From assembly GCA_013204985.1 (NCBI GenBank), contig JABMLG010000002.1:1-64000 (forward strand): a DNA stretch of 64,000 nucleotides. Reading direction: 5' to 3'. The DNA is from Microbacteriaceae bacterium VKM Ac-2855. Lineage in GTDB: Bacteria > Actinomycetota > Actinomycetes > Actinomycetales > Microbacteriaceae. Both the position numbers and the translations under genes were made by a program. The notes under the pieces are model-generated. The model was not told the origin of the DNA. It saw nothing but the letters and a program-made list of their open reading frames with translations, and searched no databases. Below, in pieces: positions 23,291 through 28,143 of the stretch. Position 1 is the stretch's first letter. Every line of letters starts with the position of its first letter.

Positions 23291-23377
23291 GTCACAGGCG
23301 GCAGCCCTCAGCCGACTCATCTGCGAGACGCGCCGGCGACCCTCACTGGGTCGCATCCTGGTCGCCGGTGTTGACCG
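23291..23377. repeat. Left imperfect direct repeat flanking the export cassette
   Basis: This segment shares ordered blocks with 27923-28008. One is a 16-bp block CACAGGC(GG/AA)CAGCCCT (14 of 16 identical). Another is CCGAC. The main one is a 24-bp core starting at 23339 (22 of 24 identical to 27973-27996), and a GTG-TGACCG-like tail follows. The spacing of the main blocks is 46 and 45 bp in the two copies. It also folds: 23331-23341 pairs with 23360-23370 (10 of 11). Confidence 0.7.
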
Positions 23378-23402
23378 CTCTGTACCGGCGTGTGTCGCGT
23401 GG

Positions 23403-23432
23403 TTGAGCGGGGCGGAATCCGACGTGTAGATT
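23403..23432 (+). promoter_or_regulatory. Predicted promoter of the export cassette
   Basis: TTGAGC (23403-23408) and TAGATT (23427-23432) are separated by 18 bp. The start would be near 23439, about 46 nt before the first gene. This lies inside the left repeat boundary, so the cassette appears to carry its own promoter. Confidence 0.45.
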
Positions 23433-23484
23433 CTCGGTATGGCCACTTGTGTATGGTCAGCGGCCCGACTGAGATGAGCACACG

Positions 23485-23886
23485 ATGAACGAGAACCACG
23501 CCCGCACCCGCCGCACCGTTGCGCAGGGAATCGCGACGGCCATGATCGCGGTATGTGCCGTCGGCTTCGTTGCGCCGGCTGCCAATGCATCCCAGACGCT
23601 CTATTGCCCGCGAGGTCAGTACTGCGCGTGGGAGGACGATCTCAAGCAGGGAAAGATCTTCAATACGAACGCGACATTCGGCTATGTAGGAGATGGATGG
23701 AACGATCGGTTCTCGTCGCTCGAGAACAACACGACACGAACTGTGACCTACTACCAGCACGCCTACGGCACAGGCAGCGCACCTCCGCTCAGCGCGGGGA
23801 CGTCTGCCCTACAGCTCCAGTACGAGTGGCAGACCGGTTTAGCCGGCACATGGAACGACCAGATCTCCAGCGTCACGGTGTTCTGA
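23485..23886 (+). CDS. Small secreted protein, peptidase-inhibitor I36-like
   Basis: A 133-aa exported protein. The N-terminus RTRR, a hydrophobic core and the cleavage-site-like APAANAS (about residue 36) form a signal peptide, leaving a mature domain of about 97 residues. The mature part has one Cys pair (CPRGQYC, then AWED). It shows two copies of a GxWNDxxSS motif (GDGWNDRFSSLEN and GTWNDQISSVTVF), the pattern of I36/SMI inhibitors with a beta-gamma-crystallin-like fold. Target protease or other role is unknown. It is the first gene of a cassette with a lipoprotein, an adaptor and a MacB-like ABC protein. The ribosome-binding site is weak. Confidence 0.75.
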   Translation: MNENHARTRRTVAQGIATAMIAVCAVGFVAPAANASQTLYCPRGQYCAWEDDLKQGKIFNTNATFGYVGDGWNDRFSSLENNTTRTVTYYQHAYGTGSAPPLSAGTSALQLQYEWQTGLAGTWNDQISSVTVF

Positions 23887-24747
23887 ATGGTCGCGATTCG
23901 CCCGTTCGGCCTCCTGGTGTTCACAACCGTCGCCCTGGCGGCGCTCAGCGGCTGCGCCTCCTCGCCGAACGGAGCACCGCTGAGTCGCCCGTCCGTGAAC
24001 TACGTACCGGGTGTGGCCGTCCTCGATCCGAAAACGGCGACGGTGACGGAGCCTCTCGACGCCTACGACGCGGACGCATCCGCCCAGCTCGAGCTCGATC
24101 GAGCCGCCGACCTGCTCATGCAGGAATGCGCGGCGGAGAAAGGCGTCGACCTCGCTTATCCGAACGTGTTCGATTACCCTCCCTCGACGTTCTATCAGCT
24201 GACATATTTCGGACCCTGGACCGAGGATCGAGCATCGAGGACCGGGTTCGACTTCCCGGAGGACAAACTGTCTCTCGCTCGGACGGTGTTCTACAGCTCG
24301 ATGTCCCCGGAGGTCTCGGACGTGATCGACGACTGTGCACGGAACGAACTGACGGATCCGGTGACCATTGACGTGTCCGGAGAATCGAGCATCGTCCGTC
24401 GGGGCAAGACGGAGAGCTGGGACTGGGCCTCCGGGGATCCGGTCTGGGCTGCCGCGATGGATGCCTATGCGACCTGTATGACGGATGCGGGTTACACGTT
24501 CGACGAGTCCCGCTCGCCGTACGTGCCCACTATTCAGGGTGAGCCCAGCAGCGCTGAGGGCATCACCGCCGCCCTGCGTGAGGTCTCGTGCATGAATTCC
24601 GTCGGCGCGCCGCAGATCTTCAGTGATGTCGCTGCGGCGTATCAGACGGTCTTCATCGCCGACAACGAGGCCGCCCTCGTCGCCGAGAAGGCCGCGATCG
24701 ACGAGAAGATCGAAACCGCACGGCAGATCATCGCTCGGAATGCATAA
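23887..24747 (+). CDS. Lipoprotein of unknown function in the export cassette
   Basis: A 286-aa protein with a lipobox, ALSGC (Cys 23). The mature part contains four further Cys residues. One lies in LLMQECAAEKG, one in DDCARNEL, one in WAAAMDAYATCMTDAGYTF and one in TAALREVSCM. A long C-terminal helix (AYQTVFIADNEAALVAEKAAIDEKIETARQII) looks coiled-coil-like. The start codon directly abuts the preceding stop, with no Shine-Dalgarno site of its own, so it is probably translated by coupling. It overlaps the adaptor gene by 8 nt. I do not recognise a characterised family. Confidence 0.75.
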   Translation: MVAIRPFGLLVFTTVALAALSGCASSPNGAPLSRPSVNYVPGVAVLDPKTATVTEPLDAYDADASAQLELDRAADLLMQECAAEKGVDLAYPNVFDYPPSTFYQLTYFGPWTEDRASRTGFDFPEDKLSLARTVFYSSMSPEVSDVIDDCARNELTDPVTIDVSGESSIVRRGKTESWDWASGDPVWAAAMDAYATCMTDAGYTFDESRSPYVPTIQGEPSSAEGITAALREVSCMNSVGAPQIFSDVAAAYQTVFIADNEAALVAEKAAIDEKIETARQIIARNA

Positions 24748-25990
24748 GACGGAGCCGGTCGAGCTCGCATCAGCACCGAGCGTGGGGGTGCGCCTCGGAC
24801 CCCGACCGCTCGTCGTCACATCGATCCTCGTCGTCGTCCTCGTCCTCATGGGCGGAGCCTTCGGCGTCGGGTGGATGCTCCGCGCGCCGGACGAGACAGC
24901 GTTTCAGAACAGCTTGAAGGCGGTGACCACGACCGCGACGGTCGAGTTGCACGCGCCGACGGCACCGACCGCCCTCGGCACGGTCGGGACCGGCTCGAAC
25001 ATCTCCGTACCTGCAACCGCGTCGGACGGGGCCGATACCGGTCAGGTCACTGCCGCACCCCTGTCAGCGGGCGCTCCGGCCGCGACCGGCTCCGTCCTCT
25101 TCGCCGTCAACGAGCGTCCGGTGTTCGCATTGAGTCTGGACGGGCCGCACTACCGCGACCTCGTCTTCGGCGACGACGGCGAGGACGTACAAGCGCTCAA
25201 TGCGGCACTGTCCGATCTCGGCTACGCGGCGGATCCGGATGAGACGTCGTACGACTCCGACACCGTCGAGTCCGTCGCCGCCTTCTACGACGATCGTGGC
25301 TACACCGCGCTTCGCACGAACTCGGTCTCGGTCACCACCACCGCAACAGCGGCGGCCACGGCCGCCCCGACCGCAGGGGCGACGGCTGCCGCGGCGGTGC
25401 CGACCGCGATGCCGAGGGGATCGAGAATGCCTTTCAGTGAAGTGTTCGATCTCGAGCAGCCCGACCTCACGGTGCTGACTGCCCCGGGCCTGTACTCGTC
25501 GATCGGTGACGGCAGCGCGGTGATGACGCTCGGGCGCCCGCTCGATCACGTTCACGCCCGCGTCGATGCGCTCACGGCGCCGAACGTCTCGGTCGGTCAG
25601 GCGGTCGCCGTGGCCGACGCGACCAGCGGGACGACCGCGGACGGCACCGTCGAATCGATCAGTGACTTCCGGTCCGCGGTGACCGGAGAGGACGGGAGCA
25701 TCTCCTCACCACCGGGCTACGACGTGTCCGTTCTCATATCGGAGCAGACGCGCGCCGCGCTCACCGCGGGAGCGAGCGTTTCGTTGCGCTTCGCGATCGA
25801 CGATGTGCAGCGGATCGCCGTTCCCGCCTCCGCGCTCCGGCAGGACGGAACGGCGAGCTTCGTGCTGACCTCACCCGCGCGGTCGACGCCGAACCGTGTC
25901 GACGTGACCGTCGTCGCTATGGCGGACGGCTGGGCACTCCTGGCCGAGGGGAGCCCCCTCGCGGTGGGCGACCTCGTCGTGGTGGGCTGA
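24740..25990 (+). CDS. Membrane-fusion-type adaptor with peptidoglycan-binding-like domain
   Basis: A 416-aa protein with one membrane segment (about residues 28-50). A peptidoglycan-binding-like helical domain spans about residues 133-188 (VFGDDGEDVQALNAALSDLGY...ESVAAFYDDRGY). An Ala/Thr-rich stretch follows, then HlyD/RND-adaptor-like beta domains, with VPASALRQDG near the end as in efflux adaptors. Such adaptors sit in the envelope and bridge an ABC protein to the wall layer. It overlaps the lipoprotein gene and lies 3 bp before the MacB-like gene, so the two are partners. Confidence 0.82.
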   Translation: MHKTEPVELASAPSVGVRLGPRPLVVTSILVVVLVLMGGAFGVGWMLRAPDETAFQNSLKAVTTTATVELHAPTAPTALGTVGTGSNISVPATASDGADTGQVTAAPLSAGAPAATGSVLFAVNERPVFALSLDGPHYRDLVFGDDGEDVQALNAALSDLGYAADPDETSYDSDTVESVAAFYDDRGYTALRTNSVSVTTTATAAATAAPTAGATAAAAVPTAMPRGSRMPFSEVFDLEQPDLTVLTAPGLYSSIGDGSAVMTLGRPLDHVHARVDALTAPNVSVGQAVAVADATSGTTADGTVESISDFRSAVTGEDGSISSPPGYDVSVLISEQTRAALTAGASVSLRFAIDDVQRIAVPASALRQDGTASFVLTSPARSTPNRVDVTVVAMADGWALLAEGSPLAVGDLVVVG

Positions 25991-25993
25991 CGG

Positions 25994-27913
25994 GTGTCTC
26001 ACGTGCTCGAGTGCATCGGATTGCACAAGCGTTACGACGCCGACAATCACCCGCTGCAGGGTGTGGACCTCGTCGTCGACGCCGGCGAGTTCGTGGCGAT
26101 CACGGGGCCGTCGGGATCGGGGAAGTCGACGCTCCTGAACATCCTCGGTCTGCTCGACCGGCCGACGGAGGGGGAGTACCGGATCGATGGCGAGCCCACG
26201 GATGCGATGGACCGCCGTCGGCTCGACGACGTCCGCGGGCGGCGATTCGGATTCGTCTTCCAGGCGTCGCATCTCATCACCGGGCGCACCGTCGCCCAGA
26301 ATCTGGCGGTCGGACTCGCCTCCGCTGACCCGGCATCGGACGCTGTGATGGACGACATCAGGCGCGCCCTGCGAAGCGTCGGGCTCGAGCACAAGGTGGC
26401 GACGCGGGTGGAGCTGCTCTCGGGCGGGGAGAAGCAGCGCGTGGCGATCGCGCGAGCACTGGTGCACTCTCCTGCCGTGTTGATGCTCGATGAACCGACC
26501 GGCAGCCTCGATGAGGACAACACGGAGGCTGTGCTCCGAGTCGTGGAGGGACTGCGCGACAGGGGTCTTGCACTCGTCATCGTCACTCACGACTTGGCGA
26601 TCGCGGCCAGGGCGGACAGGCACCTGACGATGCAACACGGACGCCTGATCGATGTCCGGCGCGCGACATCGGCCCCTCCTCGTTCCGCAGCTCCACGGCG
26701 CACCGCGCAGGTGCGGCCGACGCGATGGCGGCGAGCGCGCCTCACGACACGCGATGCCGCTCTCGGGCTGCTGTCGAAGCCGGCGCGGGCGATCATGGCC
26801 GTCGGCATCATCGCGCTGGGCGCCGGTGGCTACGTCGCGGCTGGAGCGCTGACGGCCACAGCGTCGGAGCAGGTGGACGCTTCCTTCCAGGAGGCGGCCG
26901 GCGACATGGTCCGGCTGAATCCCTCACCGTCCGCCGATCGGGATGTCGGCGCGGAGGACGCGACCCGGCTCGAAACGGTGGACGGGGTGCTGTCGGTCGG
27001 ACTGCGCTGGGACCTGACCGATCTGCGCGGAGCCGTCGCGCGCACCTTCGGTTCTGCCGGGGCGACGGACGTGCCCGGGCTCGCGGTGTCCGCTCTCGGC
27101 GGTGAGGCGATGGACACCCTCGATATCGTGACCGCACCCGCGACGGCGGTCGACCTGCTGGCGGGCCCTCCCGCCGTCGCCGACGGGGTCGCCGTGATCG
27201 GACCGGCGGCGGCAACGGCACTGGGAATCGTTCCAGGCACTCCCGGAGTAGCGCTGTGGATCGGTGATCGCAGCTTCAGCGTGGTGGGGAAGATCGAATC
27301 CGCGGGTCCGCAGGCCGGCGAGCTCGGCAGGTCGATCCTGATCAGTGCAGGGGCACGGGAGTCGGTGTCGAACCGGTCGACGACAGGCCTCCTCCTGGTG
27401 AAGACGAGACCCGGGATGGCCAAGGCGGTCGCCGACATCGCTCCGCTCGCTCTCGACGCGGCGCATCCGGAGTTCTTCGACGTCGAGACCACCGCGGACC
27501 TCGCTCGACTGCGCGGCCGGATCAACGGCCAGCTGGACCTTCTGATCCGGAACACCGGGATCGTCCTGCTCGCGCTCGCCGTACTCGCCACCGTTGCGGC
27601 GGGCTGGAACGGCGTGAATGCGCGGCGGTCCGAGATCGGGCTCCGCCGTGCGCTCGGAGCGACCAGGGCGCAGATCGGCGCACTGTTCATAGCGGAGAGC
27701 GTGCTGACCGGAGTCGTCGGCGGCGCACTCGGAACCGCTCTCGGGATCGCGGTCGTCATCGTCGGCTCGACCGCGCAGGGATGGACTCCGGTGATCGGGG
27801 TCTCGCTTCTGGTCACCGGTCCCGCCCTCGGCGCAGGAGTCGGAGCCGCGGCCGCGGCTCTTCCCGCCTGGCGTTCGGCCGCCGTGGACCCGGCACGGGA
27901 GCTGCGTGCGTGA
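25994..27913 (+). CDS. MacB-like ABC protein, fused ATPase and FtsX-type permease
   Basis: A 639-aa protein. The N-terminal ATPase (about residues 1-225) shows Walker A GPSGSGKST, Q-loop VFQASHLI, signature LSGGEKQR, Walker B VLMLDEPTGSLDED and H-loop VTHDL. A membrane segment at about 260-285, a large extracellular domain (about 290-505) and three C-terminal segments (about 520-625, with RRSEIGLRRALGATRAQI) give the MacB topology. MacB proteins do not carry substrate through the membrane but push periplasmic substrate outward. With the adaptor at 24740 it probably handles the secreted I36-like protein or the lipoprotein, which is inference. Start GTG 25994. Confidence 0.87.
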   Translation: MSHVLECIGLHKRYDADNHPLQGVDLVVDAGEFVAITGPSGSGKSTLLNILGLLDRPTEGEYRIDGEPTDAMDRRRLDDVRGRRFGFVFQASHLITGRTVAQNLAVGLASADPASDAVMDDIRRALRSVGLEHKVATRVELLSGGEKQRVAIARALVHSPAVLMLDEPTGSLDEDNTEAVLRVVEGLRDRGLALVIVTHDLAIAARADRHLTMQHGRLIDVRRATSAPPRSAAPRRTAQVRPTRWRRARLTTRDAALGLLSKPARAIMAVGIIALGAGGYVAAGALTATASEQVDASFQEAAGDMVRLNPSPSADRDVGAEDATRLETVDGVLSVGLRWDLTDLRGAVARTFGSAGATDVPGLAVSALGGEAMDTLDIVTAPATAVDLLAGPPAVADGVAVIGPAAATALGIVPGTPGVALWIGDRSFSVVGKIESAGPQAGELGRSILISAGARESVSNRSTTGLLLVKTRPGMAKAVADIAPLALDAAHPEFFDVETTADLARLRGRINGQLDLLIRNTGIVLLALAVLATVAAGWNGVNARRSEIGLRRALGATRAQIGALFIAESVLTGVVGGALGTALGIAVVIVGSTAQGWTPVIGVSLLVTGPALGAGVGAAAAALPAWRSAAVDPARELRA

Positions 27914-27922
27914 CGCACCGGC

Positions 27923-28008
27923 GTCACCACAGGCAACAGCCCTTGAGCAACCCGACCACACGATGTGACGGGACCCTCAGTGGGTCGCATCCCGGTTCGT
28001 GCTCACCG
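27923..28008. repeat. Right imperfect direct repeat flanking the export cassette
   Basis: This is the partner of 23291-23377, in the same orientation and of nearly the same length (86 versus 87). The core 27973-27996 is 22 of 24 identical to 23339-23362. It starts 10 bp after the MacB-like stop, so the four genes lie neatly between the two copies. Confidence 0.7.
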
Positions 28009-28143
28009 ATTCTTCGTCCACGAATCGCCGCGCGCGTGGCCGGGGCTCCCGCGGACGGCGGGATAATCCACACGCGTTGGCTTCAAGCAGTGACGCGAGT
28101 GTGCTCGAACCATGACTTCACCCCCGGTAAACCGGCATTTACG

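What the first reader, a model, noticed from the sequence alone, without database searches (positions are those of the whole stretch)
23485..27913. Four-gene secreted-protein/MacB-adaptor cassette between two sugar importers
Seen: a small signal-peptide protein with an I36-like domain and a doubled GxWNDxxSS motif, a cysteine-bearing lipoprotein, a membrane-fusion adaptor with a peptidoglycan-binding-like domain, and a MacB-like ABC protein. They are joined by tight or overlapping junctions (0, -8 and +3 bp) and have one predicted promoter at 23403. Known: MacB proteins use an adaptor and act on periplasmic substrates; in a Gram-positive cell no outer-membrane partner exists, so the role of this set is unclear. 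Inference: the I36-like protein may be the substrate, an antagonistic or protective envelope protein, with the lipoprotein as immunity or chaperone factor. I know of no described system with this exact composition.
Basis: partly seen in the sequence, partly recalled or inferred. Interest (0 to 1): 0.72.

Follow-up and report, generated by a model that had tools for sequence, protein, structure and literature searches.

The report
Crystallin-like secreted protein with lipoprotein partner
A small secreted protein related to eye-lens crystallins travels, in many related bacteria, with a partner lipoprotein and sometimes a pump, in a pattern that looks like a weapon with its antidote, though no activity has been tested.

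Summary
The four genes are real and correctly placed. Gene 1 (CRY) encodes a Sec-type beta-gamma-crystallin/I36 protein whose doubled motif is the crystallin calcium motif. Gene 2 (LIP) is an unnamed, predicted all-helical lipoprotein with four invariant cysteines. Genes 3 and 4 are an adaptor with a weakly supported peptidoglycan-binding domain and a fused MacB-type ABC protein. The cassette recurs in Rathayibacter (the window's genus), other Microbacteriaceae and Rothia. The core is the CRY-LIP pair, found across the class, mostly without the adaptor directly beside it. In 60 relatives, 18 of 21 strong CRY hits adjoin LIP, two lie at contig ends and one looks broken; 10 of 28 strong LIPs lack an intact CRY. 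R. iranicus has three LIPs but one intact CRY. At one shared site CRY and most of LIP diverge far more than adaptor and MacB (92-95% identical), and CRY is missing in one strain. A relative lacks the cassette. Best reading: a bacteriocin-like secreted protein with a lipoprotein immunity factor and an ABC protection module, working like NisI/NisFEG or YknWXYZ. Activity is untested. MacB is unlikely to be CRY's general exporter.

The parts
23485..23886 (+). CRY: small Sec-type beta-gamma-crystallin/I36 protein, 133 aa
   Evidence: Pfam I36 3.6e-14; profile of 18 members matches M-crystallin in the PDB at 1.4e-9 (P0001 alone finds nothing there)
23701..23718 (+). first crystallin calcium motif, NDRFSS (residues 73-78)
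   Evidence: both motifs in 12 of 18 members, one in 2, none in 4
23854..23871 (+). second crystallin calcium motif, NDQISS (residues 124-129)
   Evidence: N124, D125, S129 invariant in 18 of 18
23887..24747 (+). LIP: lipoprotein of an unnamed, predicted all-helical family, 286 aa
   Evidence: no Pfam match for P0002, no PDB match by sequence (E<=1) or fold (E<=0.001); lipid Cys plus four invariant Cys (81, 150, 197, 235)
23944..23955 (+). lipobox LSGC of LIP
   Evidence: Cys 23 invariant in 28 of 28
24740..25990 (+). MFP: membrane-fusion adaptor, 416 aa
   Evidence: weak RND_mfp match, 1.3e-5; profile matches CusB, 4.3e-4
25178..25285 (+). peptidoglycan-binding-like domain in the adaptor (residues 147-182)
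   Evidence: sub-threshold, 9 of 19 members match at E<=0.01, PDB peptidoglycan-binding domain 2e-8
25994..27913 (+). MAC: MacB-type ABC protein, ATPase and FtsX permease in one chain, 639 aa
23338..23362 (+). left copy of a 25-nt direct repeat flanking the cassette (23 of 25 identical)
   Evidence: motif also scattered in the genus
27972..27996 (+). right copy of the 25-nt direct repeat
23308..28064 (.). segment with no counterpart in a same-genus genome that has both flanking importers (G008)
   Evidence: 82.6% identity up to 23307 and 90.9% from 28065; about 150 nt lie between in G008

Best explanation
The cassette is a bacteriocin-like antagonism and self-protection module. CRY is secreted by the Sec route, loses its signal peptide and folds in the wall zone as a small (probably calcium-stabilised) beta-gamma-crystallin that harms or binds the envelope of related cells. 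LIP is held on the outer face of the producer's membrane and binds CRY or shields its target. The adaptor and MacB-type ABC protein work with LIP, using ATP-driven mechanical movement to remove CRY from the membrane or target. Shown: gene content, linkage, conservation, one-sided loss, divergent alleles, presence/absence. Inferred: that CRY is harmful, that LIP protects, that MacB acts in protection.
For: (1) Dependence runs mostly one way. In 60 relatives, of 21 CRY hits at E<1e-15, 18 adjoin a LIP, 2 sit at contig ends (G013:C60, G057:C37) and 1 looks broken (G002:C1:700482); of 28 LIP hits at E<1e-60, 10 lack an intact CRY neighbour. (2) R. iranicus (L146) has three LIPs; one CRY is intact, one has lost its middle and one is a 3' scrap, each just before a LIP. 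(3) At one site shared by three Rathayibacter genomes, CRY and the first ~600 nt of LIP are 73-83% identical per 200-nt window (L036/L040), or LIP 74-81% with CRY missing (L040/L052), while the LIP 3' end, MFP and MAC are 86-98%; for L036/L040 synonymous divergence is also higher (CRY 0.81, LIP 0.51, MFP 0.19, MAC 0.14), as expected if alleles are swapped; control L046/L048 is even, 90-92%. (4) Presence/absence: G008 lacks the cassette, and LIP occurs on three plasmid records. (5) Precedents: NisI lipoprotein with NisFEG (PMC8538875, passages); YknWXYZ against SDP (PMC4887032, abstract and passages). (6) dN/dS is 0.14-0.52 in the 22 of 24 gene comparisons that are usable, so the genes are maintained.
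Against: No activity is known and no killing residue or domain is seen. Crystallin/I36 proteins include non-toxic ones. Of 12 weaker CRY hits (E 1e-10 to 1e-3) in the 60 relatives, 2 adjoin a LIP, 4 are signal-peptide matches only and 6 are crystallin-like stretches with no LIP in the 5.6-8 kb fetched, so distant crystallins without LIP exist. LIP-like lipoproteins sit with adaptor and MacB in loci without a crystallin, so LIP may have an older role. 10 of 60 class loci show no candidate secreted partner that I could see, one of them (L117) at a contig end. Over 20 cassettes all four genes diverge together (Mantel r 0.84-0.95); the CRY-LIP tie is only slightly the strongest of those with CRY (0.862 against 0.854 and 0.842), and the conserved C-terminal part of LIP follows MFP and MAC no more closely than its N-terminal part does (0.877 and 0.866 against 0.900 and 0.904). 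The flanking repeats are a dispersed motif. The CRY fold model was poor (pLDDT 45). LIP diverges about as much as CRY, which a receptor pair would also show.
Confidence: 0.45

Rival explanations
1. CRY is a protective protein: a protease inhibitor of the I36 kind or a calcium-bound wall protein, and LIP is its membrane anchor or receptor. MacB loads, recycles or clears it.
For: Pfam I36 match at E<=0.01 in 16 of 18 members, P0001 included; at least one crystallin calcium motif in 14 of 18; three members (L043, L045, L047) do have two cysteine pairs; Myxococcus protein S is a calcium-binding crystallin-family coat protein (PMC10574481, passage).
Against: P0001 has one cysteine pair and 5 of 18 members have no mature cysteine, so the second disulfide I recall for the type inhibitor is often absent. 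Does not readily explain LIP kept after CRY decay, nor divergent alleles at one site.
Confidence: 0.22
2. LIP with adaptor and MacB is a sensing or envelope-stress device, and CRY is the secreted ligand or self-signal that LIP reads out.
For: LIP-like lipoproteins sit with adaptor and MacB in loci without CRY. Three Rathayibacter LIP loci (L038, L039, L144) carry a divergent, related histidine kinase and response regulator next door; distant response regulators (27-38% identity) lie within 12 further class loci.
Against: The kinase pair is not at the window locus or at the other loci searched. Of 41 class loci with crystallin/I36 upstream of LIP, 3 have the adaptor directly downstream.
Confidence: 0.15
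3. One reading: MacB with its adaptor releases CRY from the cell surface as its substrate, and LIP is a chaperone.
For: Tight operon in Microbacteriaceae; all four genes co-diverge.
Against: CRY has its own Sec-type signal peptide (by eye); of 60 class loci 41 have crystallin/I36 upstream of LIP but 8 have the adaptor directly downstream, though an adaptor elsewhere in those genomes was not ruled out. L035 and L052 have the triad without CRY, and L029 has LIP-adaptor without CRY up to a contig end.
Confidence: 0.1
4. The co-occurrence is mere operon hitch-hiking without a shared function.
For: Separate LIP-adaptor-MacB loci and CRY-LIP pairs exist.
Against: 18 of 21 strong CRY hits beside LIP in 60 relatives, and CRY or I36 upstream of LIP in 41 of 60 distant loci; CRY profile matches downstream in 3 of 60 against 31 of 60 upstream.
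Confidence: 0.05

Closest known systems
Nisin/subtilin immunity: LanI lipoprotein plus LanFEG ABC transporter
   Same: Immunity lipoprotein and ABC exporter encoded with a secreted antibacterial agent (PMC8538875, passages)
   Different: CRY is a Sec-type crystallin protein, and none of the cassette's four genes is a lanthipeptide enzyme; P0002 has no Pfam match and its family none in the PDB; the ABC protein is MacB-type with an adaptor
YknWXYZ of Bacillus (SDP protection)
   Same: Gram-positive MacB-like permease and ATPase with a membrane-fusion adaptor that protects against an endogenous secreted toxin (PMC4887032, abstract and passages)
   Different: YknW is a Yip1-family protein, here a lipoprotein; CRY is a crystallin and not an SDP-type peptide; ATPase and permease fused here; peptidoglycan-binding-like domain in the adaptor
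Beta-gamma-crystallins / peptidase inhibitor family I36
   Same: CRY domain family and calcium motifs
   Different: Linked lipoprotein partner and MacB set; the second cysteine pair recalled for the type inhibitor is absent in P0001
Lactococcin 972 system
   Same: Small Sec-type beta-rich bacteriocin with an ABC ATPase (recalled); P0004 gives 186.7 bits to the NCBIfam Lcn972 exporter model
   Different: Below that model's cut-off (254.85), no Lactococcin_972 Pfam match for P0001, extra lipoprotein and adaptor

Membership tests
Beta-gamma-crystallin / Pfam I36 domain | Profile match above curated cut-off | tested here: met
   P0001 52.9 bits against 21.1; 16 of 18 members, P0001 included, match at E<=0.01
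Beta-gamma-crystallin / Pfam I36 domain | (N/D)(N/D)xx(S/T)S calcium motif in each half (name recalled) | tested here: met
   Both in P0001; in the 18 members both in 12, one in 2, none in 4
Beta-gamma-crystallin / Pfam I36 domain | Double Greek-key fold | tested here: inconclusive
   Model pLDDT 45; sequence profile matches solved M-crystallin at 1.4e-9
I36 metalloproteinase inhibitor (SMI type) | Two disulfides, one holding the reactive site (recalled, from no call) | tested here: not met
   P0001 has two mature cysteines; 5 of 18 members have none; L043, L045 and L047 have four
I36 metalloproteinase inhibitor (SMI type) | Inhibits thermolysin-like proteases | not testable with these tools
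   Needs a bench assay
MacB exporter (NCBIfam equivalog) | Score above equivalog cut-off | tested here: not met
   202 against 966 bits
MacB superfamily (ABC plus FtsX in one chain) | ATPase domain followed by FtsX permease domain | tested here: met
   ABC_tran 21-169 and FtsX 523-629
MacA/RND-type adaptor | Score above subfamily cut-off | tested here: not met
   24.3 against 94.9 bits
LanI/LanFEG immunity | Lipoprotein beside an ABC protein and a secreted antimicrobial | tested here: inconclusive
   Lipoprotein and ABC present; antimicrobial action of CRY unknown
LanI/LanFEG immunity | LIP belongs to the NisI/SpaI family | tested here: inconclusive
   No Pfam match for P0002, no PDB match of the family by sequence or fold; a direct comparison with NisI was not run
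YknWXYZ | Protection against a self-made toxin | not testable with these tools
   Needs gene removal and challenge
YknWXYZ | YknW-like Yip1 membrane protein | tested here: not met
   Fourth component is a lipoprotein with a lipobox and a predicted helical domain and no Pfam match at E<=1
Lactococcin 972 system | Lactococcin_972 domain in the secreted protein and exporter above cut-off | tested here: not met
   No such Pfam match for P0001 at E<=1; 186.7 against 254.85 bits

The most novel reading that the evidence does not exclude
A previously undescribed class of Sec-secreted beta-gamma-crystallin bacteriocins, spread over the actinobacterial class, each matched to a cognate all-helical lipoprotein of a new fold. 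In some lineages the pair is coupled to a MacB-type mechanical ABC protein, perhaps through the more conserved end of the lipoprotein, and strains swap CRY-LIP alleles in front of a fixed transporter, much as polymorphic toxins swap tips.
Probability: 0.33. Interest if true: 0.82.

Novelty: new variant of a known kind. Interest (0 to 1): 0.62.

Why it matters
It gives a testable role to crystallin/I36 secreted proteins of actinobacteria, which the Pfam name alone would make peptidase inhibitors, and to a lipoprotein family with no Pfam model and no matching fold in the PDB. If the pair is a weapon and antidote, it would be a crystallin scaffold turned into a bacteriocin, and a MacB protein coupled to a lipoprotein in cells without an outer membrane.

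Tried and rejected
Promoter and terminator scan: none found. Lactococcin 972 idea: exporter model below cut-off, no Lcn972 domain. Defence-system library: no match for P0001-P0003; seven matches for P0004 through its ATPase or FtsX stretches. Phage records: no CRY. Solved structures for LIP: none by sequence at E<=1, none by fold at E<=0.001 among 99 weak matches. Pfam on the 28 LIP members: only scattered weak matches in 1-4 members each, FlgN in 4, Immunity protein 72 in 1 at 0.084. CRY fold model too poor to search. NCBIfam on CRY members: two unrelated weak matches. Flanking repeat as a mobile-element mark: the motif is dispersed, 11 of 15 genus genomes have it, and of 16 other cassettes tried none shows this repeat; L036, L037, L040 and L052 have a different, shared repeat. 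Co-divergence did not clearly single out CRY-LIP.

Dropped rows: the L033/L034 MAC value (dN/dS 1.87) comes from a coordinate slip of mine and the L033/L034 CRY value is saturated; both are left out, while the nucleotide identities use corrected coordinates. The L032 hit was only a signal-peptide match. In some searches the 12 CRY hits weaker than 1e-15 and the 15 LIP hits weaker than 1e-60 are outside the counts (the former are told in the Against line). Searches scored at most 8 and 41 candidates per genome, so their tallies are lower bounds.

Papers: ten searches gave no description of this gene set in the listings shown; the library holds open-licence papers only, several listings were cut far below the number of papers found, and most terms were narrow.
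Full report
Observation. P0001 (CRY, 133 aa) has a signal peptide by eye and matches Pfam I36 at 3.6e-14; a profile of 18 family members matches solved microbial beta-gamma-crystallins (M-crystallin, 1.4e-9; protein S, 2.5e-9), though P0001 alone finds nothing in the PDB at E<=5. The doubled motif is the crystallin calcium pattern (N/D)(N/D)xx(S/T)S, which I name from recall; the reference list of PMC10574481 cites a paper on such a universal motif. It is present twice in 12 of 18 members, once in 2 and not at all in 4; 26 motifs were seen against 0.53 in shuffles. P0002 (LIP) has a lipobox and, across 28 members, four further invariant cysteines. It has no Pfam match at E<=1 (scattered weak matches in other members) and its family no PDB relative at E<=1. 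Its AlphaFold model from 8 sequences is almost all helical with pLDDT 79 and has no PDB fold match at E<=0.001. P0003 is a weak membrane-fusion adaptor with a sub-threshold peptidoglycan-binding domain; 9 of 19 members match PG_binding_1 at E<=0.01. P0004 is ABC plus FtsX in one chain. The claimed promoter was not found.

Host. So the window is from a Rathayibacter, with a 4.7 Mb genome. One species of that genus, R. toxicus, is a listed agent (PMC5552033 and PMC7143919, starts of abstracts in the listing). Nothing here concerns its toxin, and I propose no test with Rathayibacter genes.

Recurrence. P0002 found 16 of 60 relatives and the wider profile 20 of 60. I fetched 24 neighbourhoods and searched them with profiles of all four genes. 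CRY-LIP-MFP-MAC, in that order on one strand (with one to three LIPs), stands in the window and in L031, L033, L034, L036, L037, L040 and L043-L051. In L030 CRY-LIP is divergent from MFP-MAC. In L038 the adaptor/MacB part is broken. L035 and L052 have LIP-MFP-MAC without CRY; L029 has LIP-MFP without CRY up to a contig end. L039, L041 and L042 have LIP alone. L032 was a false hit. The window genome itself has four cassettes. Rothia nasimurium, of another family by my recall, has the full set.

Core pair. The LIP profile hits 64 of 296 class genomes, in 21 of 115 genera, a lower bound. From its listing I fetched 60 neighbourhoods, E from 2e-61 to 2e-11, several from one genome. Of these 60, 31 have a CRY profile match within 900 nt upstream on the same strand and 10 more an I36 gene by Pfam, 41 in all; CRY profile matches downstream number 3. 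Of the other 19, five (L086, L099, L104, L123, L133) have an upstream secreted protein that looks similar by eye but scores nothing in Pfam, one (L092) an SH3-like protein by eye, one (L122) a ricin-type lectin domain by Pfam, two (L136, L141) a CRY match only downstream, and 10 nothing I could recognise, L117 at a contig edge. The adaptor lies directly downstream (within 400 nt) in 8 of 60, and in 3 of the 41; L133 has one about 800 nt downstream, and L119, L132 and L134 one on the other strand nearby. So the common unit is CRY-LIP, and the transporter is an extra. The adaptor-MacB pair also occurs with more distant LIP-like lipoproteins and no CRY (for example L242, L246, L249), so LIP probably came from an older lipoprotein-adaptor-ABC system (inference). 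Plasmid records of Rathayibacter festucae, Kitasatospora aureofaciens and an Arthrobacter carry LIP, the second with a CRY-like gene by eye (no Pfam match) and the third with adaptor and MacB.

One-way dependence. In the same 60 relatives, CRY hits at E<1e-15 number 21: 18 beside a LIP, 2 at contig ends and 1 that looks broken (no in-frame signal peptide) and has no LIP in 11.5 kb, where R. iranicus has a whole cassette beside the same methyltransferase. LIP hits at E<1e-60 number 28: 18 beside CRY, 10 without an intact CRY next to them, two of these being second copies in tandem. Against this, of 12 weaker CRY hits two adjoin LIP (G018, G045), four are signal-peptide matches and six are crystallin-like stretches without LIP in the fetched 5.6-8 kb. 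In R. iranicus the array holds three LIPs, one intact CRY, one CRY with its middle gone and one 3' scrap, each just in front of a LIP. Antidote genes can outlive their toxins in this way; a receptor would do so less readily.

Allelic module. Four Rathayibacter loci share a protein kinase upstream. Three of them, L036, L040 and L052, were compared by nucleotide: flanks mostly 84-98% away from CRY, adaptor and MacB 91.8-94.8%, but CRY 71.8% (L036/L040) and missing in L052, and LIP about 81%, with the divergence in its first ~600 nt. By protein, L037/L040 give CRY 82, LIP 77, adaptor 91, MacB 95%. L033 against L034 shows the same trend (CRY 63, LIP 68, adaptor 81, MacB 79% by nucleotide). L046 against L048 is even at 90-92%, and L044 against L046 fairly even at 68-75%. 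Synonymous divergence follows the same steps in L036/L040, which suggests exchange of alleles and not only fast change. Over 20 cassettes all genes co-diverge (Mantel r 0.84-0.95; CRY-LIP 0.862), so the unit is also inherited together; the idea that the C-terminal part of LIP is the one that couples to the transporter gains no support from that analysis.

Insertion. G008, same genus, holds both flanking importers, 82.6% and 90.9% identical, with only about 150 nt between them; it has no LIP match, and one CRY match of 3.6e-4 that covers only profile positions 3-47. The cassette is thus a presence/absence feature. 25-nt repeats flank it, but that motif is scattered in 11 of 15 genus genomes, so I do not read it as an insertion scar.

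Mechanism. I rank a secreted antagonist with lipoprotein immunity and an ABC protection module first (0.45). NisI/NisFEG and YknWXYZ show that such parts can work so (passages only). Membership in those families is not met or not settled on the tested features, so this is 'works like', not 'is'. A protease inhibitor or envelope protein with its anchor is next (0.22), then a sensing device (0.15; three LIP loci have a divergent related two-component pair), then MacB as CRY exporter (0.10).

Limits. Profiles were built in part from the loci they later searched; searches are the wider looks. Genomes are one per species, some in many contigs. No killing activity, binding or calcium effect has been shown. 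The CRY fold rests on sequence. Literature statements rest on ten open-licence searches.

Noticed in passing
L038 (10450-12200), L039 (6600-8390), L144 (3960-5750): A related histidine kinase and response regulator (63-78% identical) stands divergent beside LIP genes in three Rathayibacter loci, one on a plasmid; absent at the window locus.
   Followed up: partly
L036, L037, L040, L052 flanks: Repeats of the form GTCGAGTAGCC...GGCGTATCGAGACC surround cassettes at one shared site; they may be a common genus repeat.
   Followed up: no
window 23338-23362 and 27972-27996; G000:C20:474356 and 474419: GACCCTCAnTGGGTCGCATC, with GACCC/GGGTC arms, is found 0-4 times per genome in 15 Rathayibacter genomes (11 of 15 have it, up to 3 mismatches); may be a regulator site or repeat.
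   Followed up: partly
L241-L249, L252: More distant lipoprotein-adaptor-ATPase-permease loci (ATPase and permease apparently separate) without a crystallin profile match; function unknown to me.
   Followed up: partly
L132 5556-6745 and L101: Three tandem CRY genes before one LIP (L132), and a CRY-LIP-CRY order (L101), in distant genomes of the class.
   Followed up: no
L092 2598-2912, L122 2122-2730: In two loci the gene before LIP is not crystallin-like: one looks SH3-like by eye, one has a ricin-type lectin domain, perhaps a swapped secreted partner.
   Followed up: no
L143 4925-5746: On the Arthrobacter plasmid the LIP-adaptor-MacB triad follows an ORF that looks like a non-specific DNA/RNA endonuclease by eye, with no CRY profile match.
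   Followed up: no
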